Shown piece after piece: positions 3,324 through 49,320 of a stretch of 64,000 nucleotides of DNA (position 1 is the first letter of the stretch; each line of letters starts with the position of its first letter). The translations under genes and the position numbers were made by a program. Source of the stretch: Malachius bipustulatus (lineage: Eukaryota; Arthropoda; Insecta; Coleoptera; Melyridae). Under the pieces are notes generated by a model, which did not search any database, had not been told where the DNA came from, and saw only the letters and a program-made list of their open reading frames with translations. Where the stretch lies: assembly GCA_910589415.1 (NCBI GenBank), contig OU342638.1, forward strand, positions 10,208,014 through 10,272,013. Reading direction: 5' to 3'.

Positions 3324-5449
3324 ATATTGCAATCCAATGCATCCTTTTTTACGACGGGAATTCTGACTCTAGCTGTGGACAGGATCGAAATGCCTCGTTT
3401 ATGCGGTTCGATAAGACTCCCGGGGGCGTCGTTTGAAGATTTCTGCAAACGGAAACGCGGGGTATTGGAGGTTAGTAATGCTGATAATATGTGTCTAGCT
3501 TATGCGGTTGTCTTAGGGGTGGCGTATAAAACGGACAAAGCAGGTTTTGAGACTTTAATTAAAAATAAGCGACAGGTAGAAGAGCAAGGGCACCGTCTCT
3601 GCACACTAGCGGGGGTTAACTTAGCTCAGGGGGCTACTATAGAGCAGACGGCTAAATTGCAGACCTATTTATATAGCCAAAATATTGCTTTAATTATTTA
3701 TAATAGTCGCAACGGAAAAAATGTATTTTTTGACGGTTTAAAGAAAACCCTAGTGTCGCCCATCATTATTAATTTATTAATGGAGGGCGAACATGTAAAT
3801 TTAATATTAAGTCTCACAGCCTGCTTCTGTTCCAGTTATTTCTGTGAGCCGTGTCGAAAAAGATATCAGAATAAAAACGATCATATTAATTATTGTCCAT
3901 TTAAATGTCCGTGCTGTCATTCAGCGCATTCTTGTAGTGTTCTCGAGGCTAGAGTCGACTGCTCTGTTTGTTTTAGAACTTTTAGAGGTCCCCAGTGTTT
4001 TGACATGCATAAGCCTGAAATATGTAAAACATTTCGCAGGTGTAAAAACTGTCTAAACACGGTAGTCGGTAATAAAAAACACACTTGTGGCACGAAATAT
4101 TGCTCTTTATGCATGGCTCAGAAGCCTGTAAGACATTGCAAGCCTGTACATGCAACCAAACATATTAACCGTAACAAAAGCCGAGAGGCTAAGAGAAAAT
4201 TTCATTTTAGTCTTTTTTGACTTAGAATGTACCCAAACTAAGAATGTGGGTCTCGATACATTTTTGCATGAGCCTAACCTCTGCGTTGCGCAGCATGTTT
4301 GTCGAAATGTGTTGACGCTGTAATTGATATAACTGTCCCTTGTGTTAGCTGCGGTATTCGGATCCATATTTTTAGAGAGCAGCCTGTAAAAGCTTTTACA
4401 GAATATTTAGCAAAGTTGATGTTAACCGGCCATCACATCACAGTGCTAGCTCATAATATGAAGGGGTATGACGGCTGTTTCATAGCTCGAGAATTATTAT
4501 TAAACCCTCAACGGTGGCATCCAAAATTTATTAGAAACGGTAGCAAATTCATATCTAGTCACTCAAATTGTCAAAACTATAGATAGCTTAAATTATATGC
4601 CTCTTCCCCTAGCCAAACTACCGTCCATATTTAATTTTTCTGGCTGTAAAGGTTACTTTCCTCATTTATTTAACACCCTCGAGAACAGTAATTATTCCGG
4701 CACTTTACCCGACCCCGTCAATTACATGCCTGATAGAATGAGTCAAGAAGAACGCCGTAAATTTTATAGGTGGTATAATGACGAGGTGTCGAGAAATGTA
4801 CAGTTTGACATGAATAAAGAAATCGTGGCATACTGCACTGAAGATGTCAATATTTTAAGAGTTGCCTGTTTAAAGTTTAGGCGATTCTTTTTAGAGGCAA
4901 ACGGCGTAGATCCTTTTCAGGAGTCTGTAACGATTGCGGGGGCCTGTAATCTAGTATTCAGAAGAAACTTTCTGAAATCAGACAGCATAGGCCCGATACC
5001 AACGAACGGGTATCGAATGGCTGATGGACAATCATTGGTAGCATTAAAATGGCTGTACCTGAAAGAAATATCATCACCTCACCCTATTAAACATGCGGGA
5101 AATGGTCTTGAAGTCAGGTTGCCGTCAAATCTACTTGTAGTTGGTTTTTGCGCCGTGACAAACATAGTACATATATGAATTTTACGGTTGTTATTATCAC
5201 GGTTGTAAGAGATGTTATCCCAAACAAACAGACTCAAATTTCGCAGATGACCACTCCGATATTAATATGCTTGCGTTTACCCGCAGGGAAAGAACTATGG
5301 CAAAGCATGATAAGCTCCTATCACTCGCCTACAACCTTGAGACAATTTGGGAGTGTGAGTTTCAGAAACTGATGAAAGATGATGTAAATATAATTTGTGT
5401 AAAAATAATATTGTGATAACGACGATGAAAGAAAAACATGTCATGTTAA

Positions 5450-7567
5450 TTGTTCTTTTCTTCTATTTACAGGATATGGACGTCGAACCATCGTCTGCCC
5501 GTTTACGTTCAACGGGTACATCTCGATAATACAAAACGACACACTGATAACGTCGAAATACAAACTCGTATCGATATTTTCGAATTTGACGACGACGATA
5601 TAACGAACAGTAATGGAAATGACACCGGCATGAAGGAGATAAATGTGGCAGTTCAAACGATTATCGAATCCATGAGTACGAATGATGCGAATCTCCCGCA
5701 TCATTATCGTCGTTATGAAGAAGAGCATCGTTCTGGTCAAAACTATCAAATCTCGGAACAACGGTCCATTGTTATTAATAATAATGTTCACGATGATAAT
5801 TATTGTAGACGTGGCGATGGTGGCAACGGTACGAGATATAACGAAGACGTTTCTGTGTCATATCAGCATGCCGAGCAGGACAATATCAACAGAATGTTCG
5901 ATAAAATTTATAATAATGCGATGACAAGTATACGCGAGAAACGGTCAAATGCGATGACAAGTATACACGAGAAACGGTCAGAGTTCGAGGGTACCGAATT
6001 AGCAAATCTGCCGGATGTATCGGAGTATCCGGCAAATTTGTTGGAATTGGTGGAGAACATCGATGTTTCGAATACCGGCACCATGCCGGATTTGGGAGCA
6101 TTTATGAATAATGACAATTTGATGGAAATACTAAGAGATTGTGACAATGACGGCAGCGTCGAGAATGTAAGCAAGAACAACGTACGAGTTGCCGATCATT
6201 TTATGACCGTCTCGGATCCGATACAAAATTTTGACCAGCAACCGCGATCACCGGTCCATTATCATCCGGTGGAAGGAGTCCGACAATTGAGACAAGCGGA
6301 ACAGAAAATTTTTGCCGAATTCTTTTCGTATAAACCTGTCGTTTGTGCAGACCACGATGACGATGATGATAATGTAAATAATATTGTAAGTAACGATAAT
6401 AGATTAGAAATAAGTTACAGTAGTCCGTATCCAGTCGCATTGACCAGTCGAACGACGATATCGTCACGTACGATGCCCAAGACAAAATGTTTTCTGCCAA
6501 TGTTAACCGTTAACACGTTATATTTGTTATGTCTGCTGGCGATCCGGCGGTTCGGTGTTCAATGCGACGTGGATAGATTGAAACGCACGGCGATTGTCAT
6601 GTTCAACACTAAACAAATAGTAGAACATTTAGAACAGATACGTCCAAAATTAATAGACATATTATTATTGCACGTTTTGTATATGTATGATCTAGATCTG
6701 CCCGTAAATATTGACAATTTTAACGTATCAGCCGATGTTCTGAATAATTTAGAAAATGTTCTGAGTAAATGTTGTCTATATTTACGGGCAGAATCTAAAT
6801 ACACAACGGACGAAGTCCTCGGTATGTATTTCAAAAAAATTAGAATTTTAGCAGGTCAAGATGACGGCACTGTATTTAAAATATATTTGAACGCTATAGA
6901 CGTAGGGAAAACTAAAAGATGTAGAACCAAAGGAACGGCGGTCGCCTGTAAAAAAAGAAAACGATCAACCGCCGGAACGAATAAACATGTTAAAAGTGTT
7001 GAAATCATTACACGAACCGATACCGAATCCGAGGCTGACGAACCTGTTTCAAACGAACATTTACAGACGCTTACGCGTAACGACGTATCACGACCGTACC
7101 CCGACGCAGTCGAAGCCGGAACATCGCAATCGCGTAACGCGAACGAAACAACGACGACAATTTATCATCGTAATCATCATCATGACGGGCAGTTTGCCTT
7201 TGTGAACTGTTCGGTCGACGAGGTGGCCGAATCGGAGTTCGATAAATTTGCATCCGGCAACGACGATGATGATGATGATGTTCGTGTAGATGAGAATTGT
7301 ATCGAGATAAACTCTCGGCGAGACGACGATGCTGCCGATGTAGATTGTCTGAATTCAAACGACGATGATGATGACGAAAACTTCATCATAGATTTGCAAG
7401 AATCGAATGATGACGATGATGATGACTTGTCGTCGCACCCGAACAATGTTAATTACGAAGCGGATCTTTGTGTAATAAACAATACGTTGATAAATAACGA
7501 AAAAGCCGAACGTAAAAAATTGATCACGCGCAATCGGGCCTTAGAATCGTGGATTTCGAACGATTAG
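5450..7567 (+). pseudogene. N-terminal part of a large Asp-rich protein of unknown function, virus-like composition
   Basis: A 705-codon open frame without recognised family. A good splice acceptor (pyrimidine run and TTTACAG) ends at 5473, so the listed start may not be the true one. Residues about 1-330 are polar and low-complexity, with Asp runs and an 11-residue duplicated block. Residues about 345-480 look folded, with hydrophobic and Leu-rich helices and several Cys. Next comes a Lys/Arg patch (about 490-515, KKRKRS, possible nuclear signal). The tail, from about 600, has four runs of five to six Asp. The frame stops at 7565, while a neighbouring frame is open from 7516 onward, so a small indel between 7513 and 7565 probably separates this piece from the next. 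CpG is far commoner than in flanking DNA. Same strand as the PolB remnant just upstream. I infer a captured DNA-virus or Polinton-borne gene. Confidence 0.55.
5915..5980 (+). repeat. Two tandem 33-bp in-frame repeats inside the large ORF
   Basis: The unit AATGCGATGACAAGTATACG... occurs at 5915-5947 and again at 5948-5980 with one difference (CGC to CAC). It duplicates eleven residues (AMTSIREKRSN-like). Being in frame, it fits expansion while the gene was still coding. Confidence 0.85.
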
Positions 7568-7800
7568 AGAAATTGCGATTTTCCACGGTAGACTTCGTAT
7601 CGGTACAAGGAAGCAAGAAACGGAAACGTGTATATAAGACTATTGACGAACAAGTGCGTAAGATGCCGACATTGACAAAGATTCTAGAACAGTGCGATAA
7701 CGACGACTCGTTGTTTAAACCTGATTTAGAAGACGTCATGACGTACCTTTCGGATAAATTGAACAGAGTAGAGTACGAACGGACAATCGTTACTGACAAA

Positions 7801-7949
7801 TGCCCGTATTCACAAACGATAATTTCCTAAATAATTACGTAATCAATTATACCCATCTCACTCTATTGCCAAAAAACTGCATATCTCCATCTCACTTATT
7901 TAATTAATTACGTAATTATTTAGGAAATTATCGTTTGTGAATACGGGCA
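7801..7949. mobile_element. 149-bp MITE (PIF/Harbinger-like) inserted in the large ORF
   Basis: Near-perfect terminal inverted repeats of about 43 bp: left begins TGCCCGTATTCACAAACGAT, right ends with its complement. A 3-bp direct repeat AAA flanks it (7798-7800 and 7950-7952). The insertion brings an in-frame stop at 7828-7830. The 3-bp duplication and the CCCGTATTCA end resemble the MITE at 25057, though AAA is not the canonical TWA target. Confidence 0.8.
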
Positions 7950-8080
7950 AAAGTATTATACAGTGAAATATTTAAAGACATAAACGACGACATCGAGACC
8001 TTTTTAAAATCGCTGCAGAAAGATTTGGACGTCAAAGGCTATGTGCGATTTTCATTTCCTGACAATATCAAACGATTATA

Positions 8081-8824
8081 CAGTGCTTCCCAAAAGTAAC
8101 GGATAAATTCGATAAAACAGAGAGCGCTGTTTTTTGAAAAAAATTTAAAAAACAGGTCGATTTTGTTTTTGAGTTGTTCAACGTTTGACATAATATTGGG
8201 GTATACAGGGTGATGTGCGAAAAAGTGATGACGTCATCGGTATTTTTTTTAAATGACAACCCCTATTTTTTATTTCATTTTTTGATACTTCATTCAATTG
8301 CCAATATGGTAATGTAATCAATTTGTAACCTCAAATTAGGAAATTTCTGAGAAAACAGCTTGTGAGTCGAAATTGTGCACTTTTTACTGATGTCAAAATC
8401 GGAACAATAACGATAAAAATAAAAAAAAAAATCAAATAAAAATTACTGTTTCCATGGTAATTTTATAAGATCTGTCTATTAAATTAAGTTTATTAAATTA
8501 AATCTATTAAATTAAATTATTAAATCTATTAAATCTGTCTAAATAAGTTTTTTTCTGAAAAATGTCCTTATTTAAGTTTACAAAATTATTACATTACCGT
8601 ATTGGCAATTGAATGAAGTATCGGAAAATGGAATAAAAAATAGGGGTTGCCATTTAAAAAAAATGCCGATGACGTCACCACTTTTTCGCGCATCACCCTG
8701 TATACCCCAATATTATGTCAAAAGCTGAACAACTCAAAAATAAAATCGACCTGTTTTTTTATTTTTTCAAAAAAACCGCGCTTTCCGTATTATCGAATTT
8801 ATCCGTTACTTTTGAGAAGCACTG
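8081..8824. mobile_element. 744-bp palindromic TA-flanked element (Tc1/mariner-type MITE) in the large ORF
   Basis: Ends CAGTGCTTC...GAAGCACTG, flanked by TA at 8079-8080 and 8825-8826. The arms are imperfect inverted repeats of roughly 240 bp (8081 to about 8320 against about 8585 to 8824), separated by an AT-rich loop. No transposase. The TA duplication and CAG-type ends suggest mobilisation by a Tc1/mariner or pogo enzyme. Confidence 0.85.
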
Positions 8825-10915
8825 TACATCTTACGAGAGCTCAATCTGAACGACGCGAAAATTGAAACTTTTCTGTGGAAGCACGCTTCTCTCTACATTC
8901 TCAACGGCATGGAAAGTTATACGTACAATATGTACTTGGATCACGTATCGTTAATAGCTAATAAATATTTGATTCCTTTAGGTCCGATTGTAGATTATTT
9001 ACCCAACATTTATACATTGTTGATTCACAATCTTGATAAAATCATAACTTTATTTATTACGTTAAAATTGAAAAATTTTAAAGATATGATAAATAACATA
9101 TTCCAACACGTTCGGGTACCGCGTCTACATTTGAACAATAAAATTCGGATAGTATTTCCAAATAAAATTAACGATACGTATCAACGGCACGTCGATCAAT
9201 TTACGAGCGTTTCGATCGCGAAAGTAGCCAACGTTACGTTGAGCGATGTCGAGTTGTTGAACGTCACCGTTACAACAAACAATAAAACTTCGATCGTAGC
9301 TTTCACGTACGGCAAGCAAAACATCAGGTTACCGAGGTATATCGCACGAGAACTATATTTGTTGCACAAGTGGATCGGCGGAGATCGTGTTGTGCCAAAT
9401 TTTAAATACGTCCGATACGCGAGTATCAATCCAGAGTTACGATTCGCCGGCGAGACGGCTATTAGAGTTGCCGGTCAAGCCTGTTATCATCGCCTGTCGG
9501 ACGTATGTAAAAAGAAACACGCAATAAAAATTGCGAGTTTCGATATGTTTTCTAGCGACATACGCGCCGGTAAATATTTGCTCGTAAATCAGGTTGATCT
9601 CTTTACAACATATTCCAAATTTAATCGATACTACAAGTTAAACGACAAAGAGACTTATGTGACGGACTTATACAAGGACACTATGCGCGTTTCGTTGTCT
9701 TCTGATATATTTCCTTCTGAGACGTTATCATACAAAACTGTGACGTCGTCACCGTTGTCAGGTGATGATGATGATTCGTGCACATTGTACGTGTTCACGA
9801 ACATTTCGTGCAGGCATTACTGGCTTTTGAAAGCTAGCGTAACGTCGATCAATTCACCGTGTTTATTAAAAAAACACATCATTTTAGATTTGTACAGTAA
9901 AGTTTGTATGCTTACGAGACAGATTCCTAATGTAACTATAGGCCAAAGCCACTGTGCTCAGGTAAACTTGTTCATGTACGGTTTTCTGTATAACATAATG
10001 ACAGCTTTTTCGTTGAAGATTAAGCATCTGTCGATGACTCGGTGGGAACGATCGACGACGCTAGCTGAATCTTCCGACTTCGGCAATTTGGCTACGACGT
10101 CTAAAGATCGCGTGGTACAGGAAATATGTCAGAATTATCGAACGATGAGCGCATTCGTCACGCACATTGCAAATAGTTACGGGTTGTCGTTGTTAAAAGA
10201 GACCTGTTTGCAATTATCTATAGATTATATCGATTGCATGAGTGTCGGTCATGCGAACGATGTGATCGCGGATGATGTAAACACGAAGGAAACTTTTAAC
10301 AACAAAATTGAAGAAATTATGACGGTCGTAAATTCCAAGCACGATACCTGTCACGCAGACGTCGGTGTATACGATCTATCCAATCTGCAATTTAAGCCAC
10401 GACCAGTTACACGGCGTACCAACGTAAAAAGCGATAAGATCATATTCGACGTCTTATTCGTTAAAAATTATCTTTACCTATCGTGTGCACAATGTGTAGA
10501 AATATTACATCGAATCGTGACAGTGTATTGTAAAGGGATTCGCGATCGTCGTAGTATACCGGGCAGACGCGGTACTATGGGCTATGTCGAACTACTATTA
10601 CCGACGGACATAAACAAGACGATCGACTTTCGATTGAACCAGGACACGTTGAGAAGCCTCGGAATCACCGGTTCGGTGGCCAGAACGAAAAATTCATCAC
10701 TGTATCGTTCCTATACATTCTACGTAATTCGCACCTCCGCATCAAAATATTTGATCAAAATTACGGGCAACCAAAACTATTATTTCGCAAAGTCCGTCGT
10801 TACACCGACACATGATGATTATGATGATGATGATGACGACGGATCGATAATCGTTATATTATTTTTGTTACCTGGTATACAGTCGTCGACAATCTTGACG
10901 TATTTTATTATTTAA

Positions 10916-11204
10916 TAATTGTTAATTTTTACCGTTTATTATTAATCCAAACTGTGACCCGTCCATTATCGATGACATCGTACGCTTGTTATTATTTGTT
11001 TAGTTTTCGACGAGTATCGATATATATTTAGTACCTGTGTATCTTGTTAAGATTATTTATTTATCGATATGTCGATTATCTGTGATAATGTTAAATATTT
11101 GCAATTCTATTATTACGAATTGCGTAGTAAACGATACCGATTATTATGTATACAGTATTAATGACAATCAGTATTATTTTTTATTTTGTCGTGAAATATC
11201 ACAT
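10916..11204. other. AT-rich spacer between the virus-like ORF and the tandem array
   Basis: No convincing gene or repeat. CpG remains fairly frequent up to about 11160, so this may be the 3' flank of the captured element. AATAAT-type strings could act as polyadenylation signals but none stands out. Confidence 0.4.
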
Positions 11205-11728
11205 TTGCCTTGTGTTGATTAAAAGTGGCATCATTTCAAGCATACCGAGATCGTATTAATAAAGCTTTGGAACCCAAATCCCAATGGACCCAATGACAAC
11301 GAAGTATGTCCGAGTCTTACGTTAACCGGCTCTTTTTCAAAGAGACTTATTAATAATCGCTAATTAGCGATTGGGAAATCTCCCCCTTTATATCATTCCA
11401 ATGAAATTGTTGAGGTGAATGCAGAAACCCCAACCAATGAGGAAATAAATGTCAAAAGGAAGAAATCAATAATGGATTATATCGAAACACAAGTTACAAT
11501 AATTGGAGTTTTAGGTCTTCCTTAGCCTAATTGTACCCAGATTTGAGATTTATTTCAAAATATCTACCCTGGCTAGAATCTTTAAAGTTTAAACCTATAA
11601 AAGACCACTTATTTCTACAAGTCAGGCTTACAAGGCTCCCGGTCACAACACTCCATAACTGTTATTTTAACTAAAGAGGATTCATCTTCAATAAATCTTC
11701 ATTTTGGTACCATATAAATGATATTATC

Positions 11729-15494: not shown

Positions 15495-17705
15495 TTGCCT
15501 TGTGTTGATTAAAAGTGGCATCATTTCAAGCATACCGAGATCGTATTAATAAAGCTTTGGAACCCAAATCCCAATGGACCCAATGACAACGAAGTATGTC
15601 CGAGTCTTACGTTAACCGGCTCTTTTTCAAAGAGACTTATTAATAATCGCTAATTAGCGATAGGGAAATCTCCCCCTTTATATCATTCCAATGAAATTGT
15701 TGAGGTGAATGCAGAAACCCCAACCAATGAGGAAATAAATGTCAAAAGGAAGAAATCAATAATGGATTATATCGAAACAAAAGTTACAATAATTGGAGTT
15801 TTAGGTCTTCCTTAGCCTAATTGTACCCAGATTTGAGATTTATTTCAAAATATCTACCCTGGCTAGAATCTTTAAACCTATAAAAGACCACTTATTTCTA
15901 CAAGTGGCGACTGTTTTCTTCAAAAAAAAAAAAAAAACATGACATGAAGTATACTCATAGGTCCATAACACTGACGCTGTTTCAAAATTTTACAGCTCTA
16001 CTCTACACTGGCAGTTAATAAGAAAAAGTCAGGCTTACAAGGCTCCCAGGTCACAACACTCCATAACTGTTATTTTAACTAAAGAGGATTCATCTTCAAT
16101 AAATCTTCATTTTGGTACCATAGAAATGATATTATCAAACCTTGTTATCAAGAATATTGAGTTACAACAATTATTATTGTTCATTTTTAAATCAAGTAAC
16201 CAGGCCCAACCTGCAAACCTGATATGGGAAAGTTTACACTTCATTTGTTGTTCCCTTGTCATTACACATCAACGAATTTACTATATTCGGATTCGGTGAT
16301 CATAATCGCAACTAGCAGGAAGAGGCTGAGCGAAAGACAGAACTAAATTAGGATTTTTTGGCAGATGAAAAATATGCTGTAAAAATCTTTTCGTAGCACA
16401 TTGCTTGCATGTGCTCTAGTAAGTGCCACCTCCCCCACTTTTTTCTTCTTAGAGCAACTTCACTTATTCACTAGTATGACGAAATCGGATATGTTTTCCA
16501 AGACCTGTATTTAAAAACTTGATTTTTAATTTTTTGCTATTTTGTTTAAATTAAATTTCTAAAAACTCCTCGATCGACATGAAAATGTTATCAATTTTAG
16601 TGTATTCTTTTGGCAGCTGATCGTAGGTAGGAAATTTCACGAAAGTAGGTACCTACTCATAGATTAGTTTAATGTGTGGTAATAGAACTTGCTGCTCTTT
16701 AGACAATTTTTTCAAGAGAACAAGAAGAACCTCCTCTACCCTCCAGTCACCCCCCCCCCCTCTTACCCAGGTGACAATATAAACAAATAACAACAACGTT
16801 GTTGCTTAATATTTAAATACCACGTGCCTAAAAACAATGTTATTAAGTTTTTATTAAGACTCGGACATTCGGTGCCAACATTGGGTTCAGACTTTGATTT
16901 GAAAGACTTTGAATCGTCTTCTACTGTCAATTTCGATGCAGTAGACAAATGTATTTTCATCGCTTGGGGTCAACCTTTGATATGGTATATTTGAATAATC
17001 TTCTGTTGTTAATTTTGATTCAGTAGACCAATTACAATACTTTTGATAGTATGATGTTAACATTTCATCTGGTAGACTTTGTTATTTCGCATCGCTGGTA
17101 GATATTGTTAATGCTGATTCAGTAGACCAATATGCTTCGAATCGTTTGGTGGAAACGTTTGATCTGGTAGACTTGGAATCGTCTTCTGCTATTGTTAATT
17201 ACTGATTCGGGCTTCTATTCTCACTTTATATCTGGTACTGTCTTCTGCTATCGATTCTGATACTTTGAATTTTTCAAGATAAGAGTACACTGCTGCCAAT
17301 TTTTTATCGAGTAAACTCTGATTAGTCTTCAATTACCAATCAATCTCTATCCAGTGGAACTTTGAATTAACTTTTGTTGCTAGCAGTAAATTATCGATTT
17401 GGCAGGATTTGGATGATCTGCTATCAAATCTGCATGGATGTTTAGATGGACTACCTATCTTTATAAATTCTTCTTAATATTTCTGTTTATAGCAGTGTAC
17501 ATTTGTTTTGTTGGTTCTGGATCGGTTATAATTTGAGTCGTCTTCTGTTTGCAATCTTCTTACTATTAGCTCAGTTCCTGGTAATAGAACATGCGAGTAA
17601 TTCTGTTAGGAATTGAACAAGACGTACCAAAAACAGTTGTCACTTTTTCTCTCCAACATTGCAGGACATCATCACTTGATAAGTTCTTGAATGGCAGCTT
17701 TTGAG
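15495..17705. repeat. Array copy 2 (type B)
   Basis: Cleanest reference unit, 2211 bp. Type B marks: GCGATAGG near 15655, AGACAGAACTAAATTAGG near 16335, GAATCGTCTTC near 17178 and CCAGTGGAACTTTG near 17352. It contains the segment of about 130 bp that copy 1 lacks. Confidence 0.9.
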
Positions 17706-19921
17706 TTGCCTTGTGTTGATTAAAAGTGGCATCATTTCAAGCATACCGAGATCGTATTAATAAAGCTTTGGAACCCAAATCGCAATGGACCCAATGACAA
17801 CGAAGTATGTCCGAGTCTTACGTTAACCGGCTCTTTTTCAAAGAGACTTATTAATATTCGCTAATTAGCGATTGGGAAATCTCCCCCTTTATATCATTCC
17901 AATGAAATTGTTGAGGTGAATGCAGAAACCCCAACCAATGAGGAAATAAATGTCAAAAGGAAGAAATCAATAATGGATTATATCGAAACAAAAGTTACAA
18001 TAATTGGAGTTTTAGGTCTTCCTTAGCCTAATTGTACCCAGATTTGAGATTTATTTCAAAATATCTACCCTGGCTAGAATCTTTAAACCTATAAAAGACC
18101 ACTTATTTCTACAAGTGGCGACTGTTTTCTTCAAAAAAAAAAAAAAACATGACATGAAGTATACTCATAGGTCCATAACACTGACGCTGTTTCAAAATTT
18201 TACAGCTCTACTCTACACTGGCAGTTAATAAGAAAAAGTCAGGCTTACAAGGCTCCCAGGTCACAACACTCCATAACTGTTATTTTAACTAAAGAGGATT
18301 CATCTTCAATAAATCTTCATTTTGGTACCATAGAAATGATATTATCAAACCTTGTTATCAAGAATATTGAGTTACAACAATTATTATTGTTCATTTTTAA
18401 ATCAAGTAACCAGGCCCAACCTGCAAACCTGATATGGGAAAGTTTACACTTCATTTGTTGTTCCCTTGTCATTATACATCAACGAATTTATTATATTCGG
18501 ATTCGGTGATCATAATCGCAACTAGCAGGAAGAGGCTGAGCGAAAGACAGTAACTAAATTAAGATTTTTTGGCAGATGAAAAATATGCTCTAAAAATCTT
18601 TTAGTAGCACATTGCTTGCATGTGCTCTAGTAAGTGCCCCCTCCCCCACTTTTTTCTTTTTAGAGCAACTTCACTTATTCACTAGTATGACGAAATCGGA
18701 TATGTTTTCCAAGACCTGTATTTAAAAACTGGCTTTTTAATTTTTTGCTATTTTGTTTAAATTAAATTTCTAAAAACTCCTCGATCGACATGAAAATGTT
18801 ATCAATTTTAGTGTATTCTTTTGGCAGCTGATCGTAGGTAGGCATTTTCACGAAAGTAGGTACCTACTCATAGAATAGTTTAATGTGTGGTAATAGAACT
18901 TGCTGCTCTTTAGACAATTTTTTCAAGAGAACAAGAAGGACCTCCTCTACCCTCCAGTCACTCCCCCCCCCTTCTTACCCAGGTGACAATATAAACAAAT
19001 AACAACAACGTTGTTGCTTAATATTTAAATACCACGTGCCTAAAAACAATGTTATTAAGTTTTTATTAAGACTCGGACATTCGGTGCCAACATTGGGTTC
19101 AGACTTTGATTTGAAAGACTTTGAATCGTCTTCTACTGTCAATTTCGATGCAGTAGACAAATGTATTTTCATCGCTTGGGGTCAACCTTTGATATGGTAT
19201 ATTTGAATAATCTTCTGTTGTTAATTTTGATTCAGTAGACCAATTACAATACTTTTGATAGTATGATGTTAACATTTCATCTGGTAGACTTTGTTATTTC
19301 GCATCGCTGGTAGATATTGTTAATGCTGATTCAGTAGACCAATATGCTTCGAATCGTTTGGTGGAAACGTTTGATCTGGTAGACTTGGAATCATCTTCTG
19401 CTATTGTTAATTACTGATTCGGGCTTCTATTCTCACTTTATATCTGGTACTGTCTTCTGCTATCGATTCTGATACTTTGAATTTTTCAGGATAAGAGTAC
19501 ACTGCTGCCAATTTTTTATCGAGTAAACTCTGATTAGTCTTCAATTACCAATCAATCTCTATCCAGTGGATAAATATTTGAATTAACTTTTGTTGCTAGC
19601 AGTAAATTATCGATTTGGCAGGATTTGGATGATCTGCTATCAAATCTGCATGGATGTTTAGATGGACTACCTATCTTTATAAATTCTTCTTAATATTTCT
19701 GTTTATAGCAGTGTACATTTGTTTTGTTGGTTCTGGATCGGTTATAATTTGAGTCGTCTTCTGTTTGCAATCTTCTTACTATTAGCTCAGTTCCTGGTAA
19801 TAGAACATGTGAGTAATTCTGTTAGGAATTGAACAAGACGTACCAAAAACAGTTGTCACTTTTTCTCTCCAACATTGCAGGACATCATCACTTGATAAGT
19901 TCTTGAATGGCAGCTTCTGAG
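17706..19921. repeat. Array copy 3 (type A)
   Basis: 2216 bp. It carries the type A marks shared with copy 1: GCGATTGG near 17868, AGACAGTAACTAAATTAAG near 18545, GAATCATCTTC near 19388 and CCAGTGGATAAATATTTG near 19563. Confidence 0.85.
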
Positions 19922-22130
19922 TTGCCTTGTGTTGATTAAAAGTGGCATCATTTCAAGCATACCGAGATCGTATTAATAAAGCTTTGGAACCCAAATCCCA
20001 ATGGACCCAATGACAACGAAGTATGTCCGAGTCTTACGTTAACCGGCTCTTTTTCAAAGAGACTTATTAATAATCGCTAATTAGCGATAGGGAAATCTCC
20101 CCCTTTATATCATTCCAATGAAATTGTTGAGGTGAATGCAGAAACCCCAACCAATGAGGAAATAAATGTCAAAAGGAAGAAATCAATAATGGATTATATC
20201 GAAACAAAAGTTACAATAATTGGAGTTTTAGGTCTTCCTTAGCCTAATTGTACCCAGATTTGAGATTTATTTCAAAATATCTACCCTGGCTAGAATCTTT
20301 AAACCTATAAAAGACCACTTATTTCTACAAGTGGCGACTGTTTTCTTCAAAAAAAAAAAAAAACATGACATGAAGTATACTCATAGGTCCATAACACTGA
20401 CGCTGTTTCAAAATTTTACAGCTCTACTCTACACTGGCAGTTAATAAGAAAAAGTCAGGCTTACAAGGCTCCCAGGTCACAACACTCCATAACTGTTATT
20501 TTAACTAAAGAGGATTCATCTTCAATAAATCTTCATTTTGGTACCATAGAAATGATATTATCAAACCTTGTTATCAAGAATATTGAGTTACAACAATTAT
20601 TATTGTTCATTTTTAAATCAAGTAACCAGGCCCAACCTGCAAACCTGATATGGGAAAGTTTACACTTCATTTGTTGTTCCCTTGTCATTATACATCAACG
20701 AATTTACTATATTCGGATTCGGTGATCATAATCGCAACTAGCAGGAAGAGGCTGAGCGAAAGACAGAACTAAATTAGGATTTTTTGGCAGATGAAAAATA
20801 TGCTGTAAAAATCTTTTCGTAGCACATTGCTTGCATGTGCTCTAGTAAGTGCCCCCTCCCCCACTTTTTTCTTCTTAGAGCAACTTCACTTATTCACTAG
20901 TATGACGAAATCGGATATGTTTTCCAAGACCTGTATTTAAAAACTTGATTTTTAATTTTTTGCTATTTTGTTTAAATTAAATTTCTAAAAACTCCTCGAT
21001 CGACATGAAAATGTTATCAATTTTAGTGTATTCTTTTGGCAGCTGATCGTAGGTACAAAATTTCACGAAAGTAGGTACCTACTCATAGATTAGTTTAATG
21101 TGTGGTAATAGAACTTGCTGCTCTTCAGACAATTTTTTCAAGAGAACAAGAAGAACCTCCTCTACCCTCCAGTCACCCCCCCCCCTCTTACCCAGGTGAC
21201 AATATAAACAAATAACAACAACGTTGTTGCTTAATATTTAAATACCACGTGCCTAAAAACAATGTTATTAAGTTTTTATTAAGACTCGGACATTCGGTGC
21301 CAACATTGGGTTCAGACTTTGATTTGAAAGACTTTGAATCGTCTTCTACTGTCAATTTCGATGCAGTAGACAAATGTATTTTCATCGCTTGGGGTCAACC
21401 TTTGATATGGTATATTTGAATAATCTTCTGTTGTTAATTTTGATTCAGTAGACCAATTACAATACTTTTGATAGTATGATGTTAACATTTCATCTGGTAG
21501 ACTTTGTTATTTCGCATCGCTGGTAGATATTGTTAATGCTGATTCAGTAGACCAATATGCTTCGAATCGTTTGGTGGAAACGTTTGATCTGGTAGACTTG
21601 GAATCGTCTTCTGCTATTGTTAATTACTGATTCGGGCTTCTATTCTCACTTTATATCTGGTACTGTCTTCTGCTATCGATTCTGATACTTTGAATTTTTC
21701 AGGATAAGAGTACACTGCTGCCAATTTTTTATCGAGTAAACTCTGATTAGTCTTCAATTACCAATCAATCTCTATCCAGTGGAACTTTGAATTAACTTTT
21801 GTTGCTAGCAGTAAATTATCGATTTGGCAGGATTTGGATGATCTGCTATCAAATCTGCATGGATGTTTAGATGGACTACCTATCTTTATAAATTCTTCTT
21901 AATATTTCTGTTTATAGCAGTGTACATTTGTTTTGTTGGTTCTGGATCGGTTATAATTTGAGTCGTCTTCTGTTTGCAATCTTCTTACTATTAGCTCAGT
22001 TCCTGGTAATAGAACATGTGAGTAATTCTGTTAGGAATTGAACAAGACGTACCAAAAACAGTTGTCACTTTTTCTCTCCAACATTGCAGGACATCATCAC
22101 TTGATAAGTTCTTGAATGGCAGCTTCTGAG
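19922..22130. repeat. Array copy 4 (type B)
   Basis: 2209 bp, with all four type B marks, as in copies 2 and 5. It differs from copy 2 in only a few bases, for example a three-base change near 21056. Confidence 0.85.
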
Positions 22131-24342
22131 TTGCCTTGTGTTGATTAAAAGTGGCATCATTTCAAGCATACCGAGATCGTATTAATAAAGCTTTGGAACC
22201 CAAATCCCAATGGACCCAATGACAACGAAGTATGTCCGAGTCTTACGTTAACCGGCTCTTTTTCAAAGAGACTTATTAATAATCGCTAATTAGCGATAGG
22301 GAAATCTCCCCCTTTATATCATTCCAATGAAATTGTTGAGGTGAATGCAGAAACCCCAACCAATGAGGAAATAAATGTCAAAAGGAAGAAATCAATAATG
22401 GATTATATCGAAACAAAAGTTACAATAATTGGAGTTTTAGGTCTTCCTTAGCCTAATTGTACCCAGATTTGAGATTTATTTCAAAATATCTACCCTGGCT
22501 AGAATCTTTAAACCTATAAAAGACCACTTATTTCTACAAGTGGCGACTGTTTTCTTCAAAAAAAAAAAAACATGACATGAAGTATACTCATAGGTCCATA
22601 ACACTGACGCTGTTTCAAAATTTTACAGCTCTACTCTACACTGGCAGTTAATAAGAAAAAGTCAGGCTTACAAGGCTCCCAGGTCACAACACTCCATAAC
22701 TGTTATTTTAACTAAAGAGGATTCATCTTCAATAAATCTTCATTTTGGTACCATAGAAATGATATTATCAAACCTTGTTATCAAGAATATTGAGTTACAA
22801 CAATTATTATTGTTCATTTTTAAATCAAGTAACCAGGCCCAACCTGCAAACCTGATATGGGAAAGTTTACACTTCATTTGTTGTTCCCTTGTCATTATAC
22901 ATCAACGAATTTACTATATTCGGATTCGGTGATCATAATCGCAACTAGCAGGAAGAGGCTGAGCGAAAGACAGAACTAAATTAGGATTTTTTGGCAGATG
23001 AAAAATATGCTGTAAAAATCTTTTCGTAGCACATTGCTTGCATGTGCTCTAGTAAGTGCCCCCTCCCCCACTTTTTTCTTCTTAGAGCAACTTCACTTAT
23101 TCACTAGTATGACGAAATCGGATATGTTTTCCAAGACCTGTATTTAAAAACTTGATTTTTAATTTTTTGCTATTTTGTTTAAATTAAATTTCTAAAAACT
23201 CCTCGATCGACATGAAAATGTTATCAATTTTAGTGTATTCTTTTGGCAGCTGATCGTAGGTAGGAAATTTCACGAAAGTAGGTACCTACTCATAGATTAG
23301 TTTAATGTGTGGTAATAGAACTTGCTGCTCTTTAGACAATTTTTTCAAGAGAACAAGAAGAACCTCCTCTACCCTCCAGTCCCCCCCCCCCCCCCCCTCT
23401 TACCCAGGTGACAATATAAACAAATAACAACAACGTTGTTGCTTAATATTTAAATACCACGTGCCTAAAAACAATGTTATTAAGTTTTTATTAAGACTCG
23501 GACATTCGGTGCCAACATTGGGTTCAGACTTTGATTTGAAAGACTTTGAATCGTCTTCTACTGTCAATTTCGATGCAGTAGACAAATGTATTTTCATCGC
23601 TTGGGGTCAACCTTTGATATGGTATATTTGAATAATCTTCTGTTGTTAATTTTGATTCAGTAGACCAATTACAATACTTTTGATAGTATGATGTTAACAT
23701 TTCATCTGGTAGACTTTGTTATTTCGCATCGCTGGTAGATATTGTTAATGCTGATTCAGTAGACCAATATGCTTCGAATCGTTTGGTGGAAACGTTTGAT
23801 CTGGTAGACTTGGAATCGTCTTCTGCTATTGTTAATTACTGATTCGGGCTTCTATTCTCACTTTATATCTGGTACTGTCTTCTGCTATCGATTCTGATAC
23901 TTTGAATTTTTCGGGATAAGAGTACACTGCTGCCAATTTTTTATCGAGTAAACTCTGATTAGTCTTCAATTACCAATCAATCTCTATCCAGTGGAACTTT
24001 GAATTAACTTTTGTTGCTAGCAGTAAATTATCGATTTGGCAGGATTTGGATGATCTGCTATCAAATCTGCATGGATGTTTAGATGGACTACCTATCTTTA
24101 TAAATTCTTCTTAATATTTCTGTTTATAGCAGTGTACATTTGTTTTGTTGGTTCTGGATCGGTTATAATTTGAGTCGTCTTCTGTTTGCAATCTTTTTAC
24201 TATTAGCTCAGTTCCTGGTAATAGAACATGTGAATAATTCTGTTAGGAATTGAACAAGACGTACCAAAAACAGTTGTCACTTTTTCTCTCCAACATTGCA
24301 GGACATCATCACTTGATAAGTTCTTGAATGGCAGCTTCTGAG
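22131..24342. repeat. Array copy 5 (type B)
   Basis: 2212 bp with type B marks. Its poly-C run (about 23381-23397) is the longest of the set and its poly-A run the shortest, showing slippage between copies. Confidence 0.85.
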
Positions 24343-28043: not shown

Positions 28044-30934
28044 GTGGAGTATGATCCAGCCAATGATACTTGTTCCGACGACGACACATTTTCTGATGAT
28101 TCTGTGCAAAGTGACGATGACTTAGAAAATGAGGTTATTTCTTTTGGTGATTGGAAAATCGTACCACATACCGAAGATGATAGGCAGGTGACGGATCTAA
28201 TAGAGCCAAATATTCAAGATGAATTACATCCAGCCCTAGTTTTAGAAGAAATAATGTCCCCTCTGCAATGTTTTGAAGCATTAGTTACGCAAAAAGTTGT
28301 GTCGTCTTTGTGTACATGTACTAACCGAACGTGCGGCAATGTACTTTGTTGAAGAAACCTCTAAAAACATGAAAGTTCATCATTTAGTTTGGCACGAAGT
28401 GACCGTCAATGAGATGTATGTTTTCATGGCACTGGTTTTTATGCAAGGACTCGTCCATTTGCCAGAGTTATGTGACTACTGGAAAAAAAGCTTTCTTATG
28501 GCTGGACCACAAGTTTTTTCTGCCAGCATAATGAGTAGGGATAGGTTTCTGTCTATTCTAAAATTTTTAAGATTTACGAATCCACATGCCTTCGATAAAT
28601 CCAAACCCCTAACACGGCTTGCAATGTTCTTCGCAATGATAAAGGAGAATACCAAAACAATAATTGATATAGGTAAAACCTGTGCTCTAGACGAATGCCT
28701 TGTACTTTATAAAGGCAGACTACACTTCAAGCAATATATCAAATCTAAAAGGTCACGATTTGGAATCAAATTGTTCGTTATGTGTCCTAGTGATCCCAAG
28801 TTCAGAGGATATACATATAGTTTCGCATTGTATATAGGAAAAGACATTTACAACATCTCGCATATTCCAGGAAGTGCTGCGCTTTCTATGTCTGAACGAG
28901 TTGTGGTATATATGATGTTGGATCTACTCGATGAAGGCCGAGAAGTCGTCCTTGACAACTGGTATGTCTCCGTTCGCCTGGTTGAATATTTGCTGTCGCG
29001 AAATACATATGTGACAGGAACAATTAGGGCAAATAGAGGAGTGCCTAAGGAAATCACTGAACTGCCACTACAACCTGGACAATCGTGCTTTGTTAGAAAG
29101 GGGGATATCCTAGTCGCAAGGTTCAAAGATAAACGAGATGTTTACGTCGTTACATCGAAATTGACTGCTGGTTTTATTGAAAAAGATAAATACTCCCAAA
29201 GTGCTAAAAACACTATAATCTCGCAGAAGTCACACCATGTGGACCACTATAATTTAAACATGGGTGCTGTTGATGCCACGGACCAAGACCTTGAACCATA
29301 TAATGCAGCACGAAAGAGTTATACTTGGTTCAAGAAGATTGGGATTCACATACTACAGAGGATGGTGCTGAATGCCAAATCGATCTATTCCATAAAAAAT
29401 AAAAGACAAATAAGAATGAGAAATTTCACATTATATATATATATTCGTTTGAAATTACAAATTGCAGTCTTACGATACATGTTGTTTAGTTTATTAAATT
29501 ACATATGATTGATTTCGTCGATCATGGGGAAAAGAACGATCTGTAGGATATTCTGATGCGATGTTGACATCATGGTGAAGCATTTGCTTTGAGAGATATA
29601 GTCTAGGGAAAACCCCATTAAAAAACCTAGACACACCATCCTGTTGAGATTGGTTTGAAGTATTCCAATCATTTTGCCCTTCTGAGGTTATCTGGCTGTT
29701 AATGTAGATTTTGTTTACAAGAGCTTCAAATTCTGTAACCAGTCTATTGTTTCGGTGGAAATTTCATGAATTGCTTGAAAACCTCCAGAAAATTTGGTTA
29801 AAGGACATTCATTGACAATGTGATTGATGGATTCTTCAGGATGTCCGCAAATACAGGAAGCGCTTGGTATTAAATTCCATTTATGTAACATTGAATTACA
29901 TCTACCGTGTCCTGTTCTTAAGCGATTTACTTGTACCCAGACTTTCCTTCTTATTTCAAAACCGTTGACTAATGATGAAGGATCTTCGATTAAAGTATTG
30001 TTGAATAAAGAAACACTTTTATTTCGCCAATCATTTCTCCATTCATCTTCAATTTTAAATGGTCGATCCAGGTATGTTTCTAGCCACACAGGTCTTCTTG
30101 ATTTTAATCTCGTTGTTGGAAGATTATTCAGGTCCGATGTTATTGAAAAATCATCTGGAAATGTTCGGTATTTATTCATGATTTTATGTGTTGCTTGTTG
30201 TCTTCGGAGATTAGATGGAGCAATATTTGACAAAACAGGTAACCAAGGGATCGGAGTTGAGGAAATTGTTCCAGTAATAATTCGTAATGTTTGGTTCAGT
30301 TGAATATCCACTTTTGATTGATGTACACTGTTGAGCCATACGGGTGCACAATATTCCGCTGTTGAATAAACAAGTGCAAGAGCTGATGTGCGAATTGTTT
30401 TTGCATTGGCTCCCCAAGTTGTTCCAGCAAGTTTGTATAGAATATTATTCCTTGTTTTTAATTTTTGTTTCACTTTTTCTAAGTGTTGATTATAGGTTAA
30501 AGATATATCCAAAGTCACACCAAGATATTTTGGATTGAAATTATGATCCAGTGACGATCCGTTGAAAGTTATATTTAGCTTTTTAGATTTTTGGTGGTTA
30601 TTGAGATGGAAACATGTAACTTCTTTTTAATTTCACATTAGAATTGTGTGACGGAATACTTTTGAAGAATTCTCCGAATTATTCAGAAATATGCAAGCAA
30701 CATGAATCGAATGAAAAGGCGAAGAGGCAGAAAACTTCATCAGGTTCTTCTTTTTCACAAACAGTAGGACATGAACTCGTTCGTGCAGAACATAATGCCA
30801 GAAGAAGATGTTGGGTGTGCTACAACATTGAGAAGAAAAAATCCATTTTTACTTATAAATGTTGTATTGGTTGTGCGAATAGGCCACCTTTGTGTTCCTC
30901 AGAACATTTTACTTATTATCATGATAATTTGTAA
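28044..30934 (+). pseudogene. piggyBac-like transposase, frameshifted and split by a LINE
   Basis: DDE transposase that cuts and rejoins at TTAA. An acidic Ser/Asp-rich N-terminus (28044-28320) is typical. A frame change near 28320 leads into 28297-29433. Catalytic Asp codons are visible at 28690 (LDEC), 28954 (LDNW) and 29272 (GAVDATDQ), all three in place. The 1195-bp LINE lies after 29433. The remainder, 30641-30934, is in frame once the LINE and one 12-bp duplication are skipped. It encodes a basic segment and the C-terminal cysteine-rich domain (CWVC, CCIGC, PPLC, YYH), which binds the terminal repeats in this family. The ATG at 28021 is in another frame, so a second small indel near the start is likely. 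Dead as it stands. Confidence 0.88.
29434..30628 (-). mobile_element. 5'-truncated jockey/CR1-like LINE inserted in the piggyBac transposase
   Basis: Minus-strand ORF 29715-30518, extendable in frame to about 30626. It encodes the end of a reverse transcriptase (KYLGVTLD, KLAGTTWG, YCAPVW) and a C-terminal zinc knuckle (CICGHPEESINHIVNEC). Flanked by the 12-bp direct repeat AATTTCACATTA at 29422-29433 and 30629-30640. The 3' end lies at the left and has a TA-rich tail rather than a long poly-A. Truncation of the 5' side is normal for target-primed insertion. The ORF is unbroken over 267 codons, so the insertion is fairly recent. Confidence 0.88.
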
Positions 30935-48510: not shown

Positions 48511-49320
48511 ATCCTATTAATTTTTGGAGTATCAGGGGCGTGTCACTGTGATGAGCTATTACACTTAAATGTGGACGATATTGAAGATTTGGGAACTTTA
48601 ATATTAGTTAAAATTGTAAATACCAAAACAAAAAAACCACGTTCATTTACAATTATTGGCGATTTTTATACAAGAATGTACAGAGAATATGCCGCTCTTC
48701 GCCCAAAAGACTTTAATTTATCCAGATTTTTCATTAAATATCAGAACGGAAAGTGTCACCGTGTGGTAATGGGCATTCATAAAATTTCAAACACTTCCAG
48801 AGAAGTTGCCACTTATTTGAAATTACCGAACTCAAATGAATATACCGGGCACTGTCTCCGGCGCACTTCGGCTACCATTCTTGTTGACAACGGAGGGGAT
48901 ATAACAAACTTGAAGAGGCATGGGGGGTGGAAATCAAGCTCTGTAGCAGAGGGCTACATTAACGACTCCTTAGCAAACAAAAATGATACTGCTATGAAGA
49001 TACTCAGCCCAAAAATTAATACTAATTTAAGTGAAAATCTGCCTCATGATCCGAATACTAAGGCAATTTCACTACCATTAATTGAAAACACCGCAACTGA
49101 TGTCTTTCCAAAACTTAATCAAGAATCTGACGCACTCTTAGAGCATGGTTGTTCTCATACACAAAAACAAATAACTGTTGAAACTGGTTTAGCAAGCAGT
49201 GGCTTAAACATTCAGAATTGTAAACTTGAAAATTGTTCATTCCAAATTACTGTAATAAATAAATAGATAAATAAATAAATTCAGAAAATTTTATGTTTCA
49301 ATACTACGCTTGCGGAAAAA

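What the first reader, a model, noticed from the sequence alone, without database searches (positions are those of the whole stretch)
5450..10915. A virus-like gene of about 1,500 codons, silenced by two dated transposon insertions
Seen directly: three open segments (7549-7800, 7953-8080, 8827-10915) become one 823-codon frame when a 149-bp MITE (AAA duplication) and a 744-bp palindromic element (TA duplication) are left out with one duplication copy each. A 705-codon ORF precedes it, one indel away. I recognise no family. CpG-rich composition, Asp runs and adjacency to a Polinton-type polymerase suggest a gene from an endogenised DNA virus or an unusual Polinton cargo. The perfect frame on both sides of each insertion means it was intact when the MITEs landed, so decay is recent.
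Basis: partly seen in the sequence, partly recalled or inferred. Interest (0 to 1): 0.88.

Follow-up and report, generated by a model that had tools for sequence, protein, structure and literature searches.

The report
Broken virus gene in arthropod chromosome
This stretch is the decayed copy of one gene from an apparently undescribed baculovirus-like DNA virus that entered an arthropod's chromosome, and an intact version of the gene sits on a separate, circular, virus-like piece in the same genome assembly.

Summary
Window 5410-11206 is a CpG-rich block foreign to its surroundings. It carries one long gene broken by a 149-bp MITE, a 744-bp palindromic element, a one-base frame change and a loss of about 260 bp near its start. 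The decisive find is outside the window. The same assembly holds contig C50 (175,934 bp). Its last 11,211 bases repeat its first 11,211 exactly, so it reads as a circle of about 164.7 kb. It encodes P74 and PIF-1, signature proteins of the class Naldaviricetes, and an unbroken 1,660-codon version of this gene. The gene is therefore an endogenised viral gene, not Polinton cargo. Further broken copies lie on the same chromosome (C16): ten in a tandem array (unit about 5.5 kb) and two diverged single copies. Fragments of two other viral genes also lie on C16. Copies differ under strong constraint (dN/dS 0.09-0.27) and share no host flanks where compared. That fits several captures from successive related viruses better than one capture followed by neutral decay, though a past host function is not excluded. 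The product matches no known family. Kind: known (endogenous viral element). New: virus lineage, gene, array, concentration on one chromosome.

The parts
5410..11206 (+). Virus-derived block (endogenous viral element); equivalent to C50 about 12.57-18.12 kb in reverse orientation
   Evidence: Homology to the C16 array spans 5410-11206, to the viral contig 5442-11191; CpG o/e about 2.0 inside (inserts apart) against 0.82 outside
5450..7567 (+). Open frame of 705 codons: acidic, Asp-rich N-terminal part of the viral gene (its first codons lie before the 5' deletion, in another frame)
5497..5498 (.). Site of a loss of about 260 bp relative to the array copies (about 286 bp relative to the virus)
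   Evidence: array positions 8240 and 8501, virus positions 1926 and 2213, flank the same window point; not tested in the 11.99-Mb copy
7516..7567 (+). Overlap of the two reading frames; a one-base frame change lies here
7516..7800 (+). Continuation of the gene in the second frame, up to the MITE
7801..7949 (.). 149-bp MITE with 49-bp terminal inverted repeats, AAA target duplication; absent from the array, the 11.99-Mb copy and the virus
7953..8080 (+). Gene segment between the two inserts
8081..8824 (.). 744-bp palindromic element, ends CAGTGCTTC/GAAGCACTG, TA target duplication; absent from the array, the 11.99-Mb copy and the virus
8827..10915 (+). C-terminal part of the gene (most of the 699-codon frame), the more constrained half
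10916..11206 (+). 3' flank of the viral gene, still virus-derived
   Evidence: array 89.6% over 11032-11206; short matches to the virus
4504..5178 (+). Polinton-type B-family DNA polymerase fragment near the left edge of the block; host mobile DNA, not part of the viral gene
   Evidence: PF03175, 9.7e-12; 'Polinton-type' is recalled, Pfam says organellar and viral type B

Best explanation
The block is an endogenous viral element. Shown: it is a collinear, broken copy of one 1,660-codon gene, plus short flanks, that is unbroken on a contig which reads as a circle of about 164.7 kb and encodes P74 and PIF-1. Inferred: DNA of a nuclear, circular double-stranded virus of the class Naldaviricetes was joined into germline chromosome C16, probably by end-joining repair. 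The gene then lost function by small indels, a deletion and two transposon insertions. Inferred with less certainty (about 0.5): several related viruses gave the same region to this chromosome at different times (window copy, array progenitor, the 11.99-Mb copy, the 37%-identical copy), and one of these was later amplified into ten tandem units. In the virus the protein most likely acts as a large structural or nuclear regulatory protein, with a variable acidic N-terminal half and a constrained C-terminal half of about 850 residues; this last step is a guess. The confidence given is for the endogenous-virus part.
For: tblastn of the 699-aa window piece gives 42 matches, all on C16 or C50 (a scored list, so a floor); C50 at 81% within a 1,669-codon open frame. 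C50's ends repeat exactly (where proteins are found at both ends). P74: Pfam 1.4e-40 and 7.7e-36; PIF-1: 7.6e-21; kinesin motor 5.9e-76. CpG o/e 2.29-2.61 in ten C50 pieces and about 2.0 in the block against 0.82 in the rest of the window. Broken gene: inserts, frame change, deletion. Separate captures: window against array dN/dS 0.27 at dS 0.235, 0 stops in 1,459 codons of the window copy; with the virus as outgroup, window-private single changes 50 N, 82 S, 0 stop against 71.5% N, 24.9% S, 3.6% stop for random change; array-private 16 N, 23 S, 0 stop; the only matches between window and six C16 pieces outside the block are short dispersed repeats at window 32.7-33.4, 37.6, 40.0 and 62.7-63.9 kb, and none with the left flank in translation. 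Array stretches 99.6-100% alike, step about 5.5 kb, ten copies.
Against: The product has no convincing homologue outside this genome; the few Pfam and PHROG matches are below cut-off or near chance, so its role is unknown. That C50 is an episome rather than an integrated piece rests on assembly redundancy alone; no read depth was seen. Low dN/dS would also be produced by a past host function. The window and array copies are each other's closest kin (90% identical), and each has a frame change within the same few bases, which could hint at something shared. Only about 57% of the circle was read, and two of its ten pieces (L011, L012) hold few long frames.
Confidence: 0.9

Rival explanations
1. 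One capture, then host domestication: the viral gene served the host, duplicated locally on C16 under purifying selection, and all copies broke only recently. (Competes with the 'several captures' step, not with the viral origin.)
For: All chromosomal copies found lie on one chromosome, all on the + strand; dN/dS below 0.3 between the four copies compared; a tandem array is typical of local duplication.
Against: No unbroken full-length chromosomal copy among those seen; no shared flanks where compared; host copies keep virus-like CpG (1.85-2.01 in coding sites) although dS to the virus is 0.7-2.6, which long residence in this genome (window outside the block 0.82) should have eroded.
Confidence: 0.2
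2. One ancient integration of a whole virus genome into C16, later broken up, with only a few pieces left. (Also competes only with the 'several captures' step.)
For: A fragment of PIF-1 (11.569 Mb) and three of the 285-aa neighbour gene (2.599, 2.614 and 12.0016 Mb) also lie on C16; the last is about 8 kb from the 11.99-Mb copy of the long gene.
Against: P74, the P33-like protein and the 512-aa protein have no chromosomal match; one integration does not explain copies that diverged under constraint.
Confidence: 0.25
3. Unusual Polinton (Maverick/adintovirus) cargo gene.
For: A Polinton-type polymerase fragment lies next to the block.
Against: The homologue is on a P74/PIF-1 contig; the left flank with the polymerase has no translated match in C16 pieces L020, L021, L025-L028, nor to the right of the block in the window.
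Confidence: 0.02
4. Host gene family captured by the virus (transfer from host to virus).
For: More copies in the host than in the virus.
Against: The chromosomal copies carry the virus's CpG-rich make-up, unlike their surroundings; none of those seen has an unbroken full-length frame.
Confidence: 0.03

Closest known systems
Endogenous elements of labial gland disease viruses and AmFV-like viruses in ants (PMC12548425; passages, section 12)
   Same: Broken naldavirus genes in arthropod chromosomes, independent captures followed by duplication, dN/dS below 1 for most, and for one ant a separate virus scaffold recovered from assembly data
   Different: Here another, unnamed host; a gene of no known family; ten tandem units; the clear chromosomal pieces found here lie on one chromosome
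Apis mellifera filamentous virus (PMC4517127) and AmFLV (PMC11019937) (passages)
   Same: Large double-stranded DNA, pif genes, a kinesin-motor gene
   Different: AmFV about 498.5 kb and 50.8% GC, AmFLV 152.7 kb reported as linear; C50 about 164.7 kb, 34-41% GC in the ten pieces read. No direct sequence comparison with these named viruses was possible here
Nudiviridae (size range from a passage of PMC11019937; gene set from passages of PMC10271883)
   Same: Circular genome in the 90-230 kb range, P74 and PIF-1
Polinton/Maverick elements (recalled)
   Same: A polymerase fragment lies next to the block
   Different: The gene belongs to a P74/PIF-1 contig, and the polymerase flank is not shared with the other copies compared; capsid genes and terminal repeats around the block were not looked for specifically

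Membership tests
Endogenous viral element | Lies inside a host chromosome with host DNA on both sides | tested here: met
   Window is C16:10208014-10272013 of a 40.4-Mb contig; mobile-element frames on both sides
Endogenous viral element | Homologous to a viral gene | tested here: met
   81% identity to a gene on the P74/PIF-1 contig
Endogenous viral element | Signs of decay | tested here: met
Naldaviricetes (for contig C50) | pif0/p74 and pif1 | tested here: met
   Pfam, above the curated cut-offs
Naldaviricetes (for contig C50) | pif2, pif3, pif5 | tested here: inconclusive
   No such Pfam match among the 40 C50 proteins scanned; about 43% of the circle was not read
Naldaviricetes (for contig C50) | Circular double-stranded genome | tested here: met
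   11,211-base exact terminal repeat; by assembly only, no reads seen
Naldaviricetes (for contig C50) | p33 sulfhydryl oxidase | tested here: inconclusive
   Baculo_p33 E 0.037, below cut-off; no P33 match in PDB
Naldaviricetes (for contig C50) | DNA polymerase B | tested here: inconclusive
   No Pfam match among the 40 proteins scanned
Lefavirales | lef-4, lef-8, lef-9 | tested here: inconclusive
   Not recognised by Pfam among the 40 proteins scanned
Naldaviricetes (for contig C50) | Rod-shaped nucleocapsids, nuclear replication | not testable with these tools
   -
Polinton cargo | Gene travels with Polinton genes | tested here: not met
   Polymerase flank not shared with the six C16 pieces compared
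MITE (7801-7949) | Short, non-coding, terminal inverted repeats, target duplication | tested here: met
   copy number in the genome not tested

The most novel reading that the evidence does not exclude
The host has repeatedly taken up, and in one case amplified tenfold, the same gene region of a virus lineage that still infects it, because the copies act against the virus, as templates for antiviral small RNAs or formerly as an interfering protein.
Probability: 0.15. Interest if true: 0.85.

Novelty: new member of a known kind. Interest (0 to 1): 0.58.

Why it matters
It pairs, in one assembly, a virus that appears to be carried now with copies of its gene captured earlier, which lets virus and host rates be compared directly. 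It adds a deeply diverged naldavirus lineage (P74 33% to its nearest in the collection searched). The ten-unit array of a single viral gene, and the concentration of pieces on one chromosome, make the question whether such copies are kept by chance or for defence testable by small-RNA sequencing.

Tried and rejected
Family, structure and database searches with the pieces gave nothing usable. Pfam: none for the 705- and 104-aa pieces, one match below cut-off for the 699-aa piece (0.068); three below cut-off for the unbroken viral protein, best 0.0013 to an ATG1-like MIT domain. PHROGs: three matches between 0.027 and 0.17 for the 705- and 104-aa pieces. PDB: none for the 699-aa piece or a six-row alignment of the C-terminal part. 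Protein collection: none for the 699-aa piece (its length limits exclude full-length relatives) or residues 850-1650 of the viral protein; the 705-aa piece was not searched there. IMG/VR: none for either long piece. The structure prediction of the 699-aa piece was useless (mean pLDDT 32) and was not searched further. IMG/VR scans with the polymerase fragment and P74 gave nothing, nor did tblastn of one C50 protein in the phage collection. A 10-kb viral DNA piece (L014) gave seven listed matches: one 90-bp PIF-1 fragment on C16 and six short ones on C14, C1 and C7 (E 1.9e-11 to 7.4e-4), which I take for simple-composition matches but did not resolve; one of six candidates went unscored and C50's own stretch is not in the list, so it is incomplete. 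A second 10-kb piece had candidates that could not be scored. AlkB-like matches on C16 were not counted as viral, because AlkB genes also occur in hosts.
Full report
What is there. Window 5410-11206 is a foreign block. Its CpG observed/expected ratio is about 2.0 (1.98 left of the MITE, 2.04 right of the palindromic element) against 0.82 for the rest of the window (profile). Its open frames of 705 and 699 codons far exceed chance: in 60 simulated 64-kb sequences of the same dinucleotide make-up the longest frame was 240 codons. Codon preferences, learned from parts of these same frames and so not independent, mostly follow one frame along 5476-7500 (one overlapping segment, 5701-5850, prefers another), a second along 7576-7800, and the expected frames on both sides of the palindromic element.

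The match that settles it. The pieces have no convincing relative in Pfam and PHROGs or IMG/VR; the C-terminal piece has none in PDB or the protein collection, nor has the C-terminal half of the unbroken protein. Searching the window's own assembly (544 Mb, 52 contigs) with the 699-aa piece gave 42 matches, all on two contigs (the tool calls its counts lower bounds). One is C50, 175,934 bp, where the gene is unbroken: 1,669 codons from stop to stop, 1,660 from its ATG, at C50:13103-18082 on the minus strand. The last 11,211 bases of C50 equal the first 11,211 (100%), and proteins are found at both ends. This is how an assembler writes a circle, here 164,723 bp. Of the ten 10-kb C50 pieces, L009 and L013-L018 are dense in long frames on both strands and L010 is half filled by this gene; L011 and L012 hold few, partly because of a repeat array, and the first 2 kb of L011 are not CpG-rich.

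What C50 is. Forty C50 proteins were scanned. Pfam recognises, above cut-off, P74 (1.4e-40 and 7.7e-36), PIF-1 (7.6e-21), a kinesin motor (5.9e-76), a helicase-type AAA domain (3.7e-9; Viral_helicase1 2.7e-8) and an AlkB-type oxygenase (3.8e-22). Weak, below cut-off: a chitin-binding domain (0.00096; VP91 carries one, recalled), Baculo_PEP_C (0.0033), XPG_N of flap endonucleases (0.023) and Baculo_p33 (0.037); the flap-endonuclease reading is echoed by PDB at 0.26. Homologues of pif genes are described as signature genes of Naldaviricetes (PMC10271883, passages). The nearest near-full-length P74 in the protein collection is 33% identical (nine found, unnamed). A kinesin gene is also reported in AmFV and AmFLV (PMC4517127, PMC11019937, passages). 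I place C50 in Naldaviricetes and leave order and family open, since lef genes and DNA polymerase were not recognised and 43% of the circle was not read.

The other copies. All chromosomal copies of the long gene that were found are on C16, + strand: the window copy (10.217 Mb); ten tandem copies between 11.359 and 11.413 Mb, the first cut short, with a step of about 5.5 kb and 99.6-100% identity in the stretches compared; a copy at 11.989-11.993 Mb; and a diverged copy at 11.413-11.414 Mb, 34-52% identical in protein. The 11.99-Mb copy has an open run of about 1,015 codons, pieced from two frames that meet at the edge of two fetched pieces; one search prints 1,531 for this frame, which I could not reconcile. 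Six viral genes were sought genome-wide as proteins (PIF-1 by its first 419 residues). Three have chromosomal pieces, all on C16: the long gene, PIF-1 (90 bp at 11.569 Mb) and the 285-aa neighbour gene (2.599, 2.614 and 12.0016 Mb). Three have none: P74, the P33-like protein and the 512-aa protein. A 10-kb DNA query added short, unresolved matches on C14, C1 and C7. C16 is 40.4 of 544.3 Mb. The remaining genes of C50 were not searched.

How the copies relate. Codons of the virus, the window copy, one array unit and the 11.99-Mb copy were compared in the frame of the viral gene, skipping gapped codons. dN/dS is 0.18 (virus-window), 0.17 (virus-array), 0.09 (virus-11.99 Mb, dS 2.6 and so near saturation), 0.27 (window-array, dS 0.235), 0.14 (window-11.99 Mb) and 0.14 (array-11.99 Mb). 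The C-terminal part (codons 801-1660) is more constrained (0.09-0.19; virus-11.99 Mb could not be computed) than the N-terminal part (codons 1-640: 0.21-0.36). Against the virus the window copy has 0 stops in 1,459 codons, the array unit 4 in 1,541, the 11.99-Mb copy 1 in 1,380. With the virus as outgroup, changes private to the window copy are 50 replacement, 82 silent, 0 stop, and 23 codons with several changes; private to the array unit, 16, 23, 0 and 6. Random change would give 71.5% replacement, 24.9% silent and 3.6% stop. With no stop seen, neutral change in the window copy is at most about 1.9% per site (95% bound). So most of the divergence built up while the gene worked. Since no working chromosomal copy was found and the copies keep viral CpG (1.85-2.01 in coding sites against 2.26 in the virus), the simplest place for that is the virus line. 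This implies separate captures: the array's progenitor earlier (short private branch, more lesions), the window's copy later. Repeated capture followed by duplication is described for related viruses in the ant Harpegnathos saltator, and dN/dS below 1 for most such genes in ants (PMC12548425, section 12).

Order of damage. The two inserts are missing from the array, the 11.99-Mb copy and the virus, so they hit the window copy after it separated. The window copy and the array units each carry a one-base frame change within the same few bases, but not the same one (seven places in array units seen, all alike). This is odd and unexplained. Whether the window's frame change came before or after the MITEs cannot be told. 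The 5' deletion at 5497/5498 is missing from virus and array; the 11.99-Mb copy was not tested there.

Against the Polinton reading. The polymerase fragment (PF03175, 9.7e-12) lies just left of the block. Translated comparison of the whole left flank with C16 pieces L020, L021 and L025-L028, which flank or carry other copies, found no match, nor does it resume to the right in the window.

What remains open. Function of the protein; whether C50 is truly an episome (read depth not seen); host identity (not determined; arthropod is inferred from the virus class and the mobile elements); why pieces concentrate on C16 (sex chromosome, piRNA locus, or local duplication of an early capture). Literature searches (listings) showed no paper that I could link to this virus or array, but without a host name this is a weak negative.

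Noticed in passing
window 15961-16299, 18171-18509, 20387-20725, 22594-22932: Four 112-codon frames about 2.2 kb apart, suggesting a large direct repeat of about 2.2 kb
   Followed up: no
window 28285-29508: Transposase frame of 407 codons (DDE_Tnp_1_7, 1.7e-59), the piggyBac type (recalled)
   Followed up: no
window 46397-47869 and 48511-49266: DDE_3 transposase-like frame (2.3e-13) followed by a tyrosine-recombinase-like frame (Phage_integrase 1.8e-8)
   Followed up: no
window 7516-7567 and array units in L021-L024: Window copy and array units carry different one-base frame changes within the same few bases of a roughly 5-kb gene; possible hot spot or coincidence
   Followed up: partly
L011:167-832 (C50:20167-20832): Frame resembling the macro-domain protein OARD1 (recalled, no search run) in a stretch with host-like CpG inside the viral contig; perhaps a captured host gene
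   Followed up: no
L012:5575-9684 (C50 about 35.5-40 kb): 90-codon frames recurring at multiples of 167 bp: a tandem repeat array in the viral contig
   Followed up: no
L021:580-805, L032:6887-8062 (C16): Three fragments 48-64% identical to the viral AlkB-type oxygenase; viral remains or host genes, unresolved
   Followed up: partly
L021:3843-4193 and L025:4266-4626: A 362-bp element lies in inverted orientation at the left edge of the array and right of the diverged copy (91.7%)
   Followed up: no
window 5466-5483 and L010:8075-8092: A TTTACAGGATATGGAC stretch that looks like a 3' splice site directly before the ATG is kept in window and virus; the viral gene may be spliced
   Followed up: no
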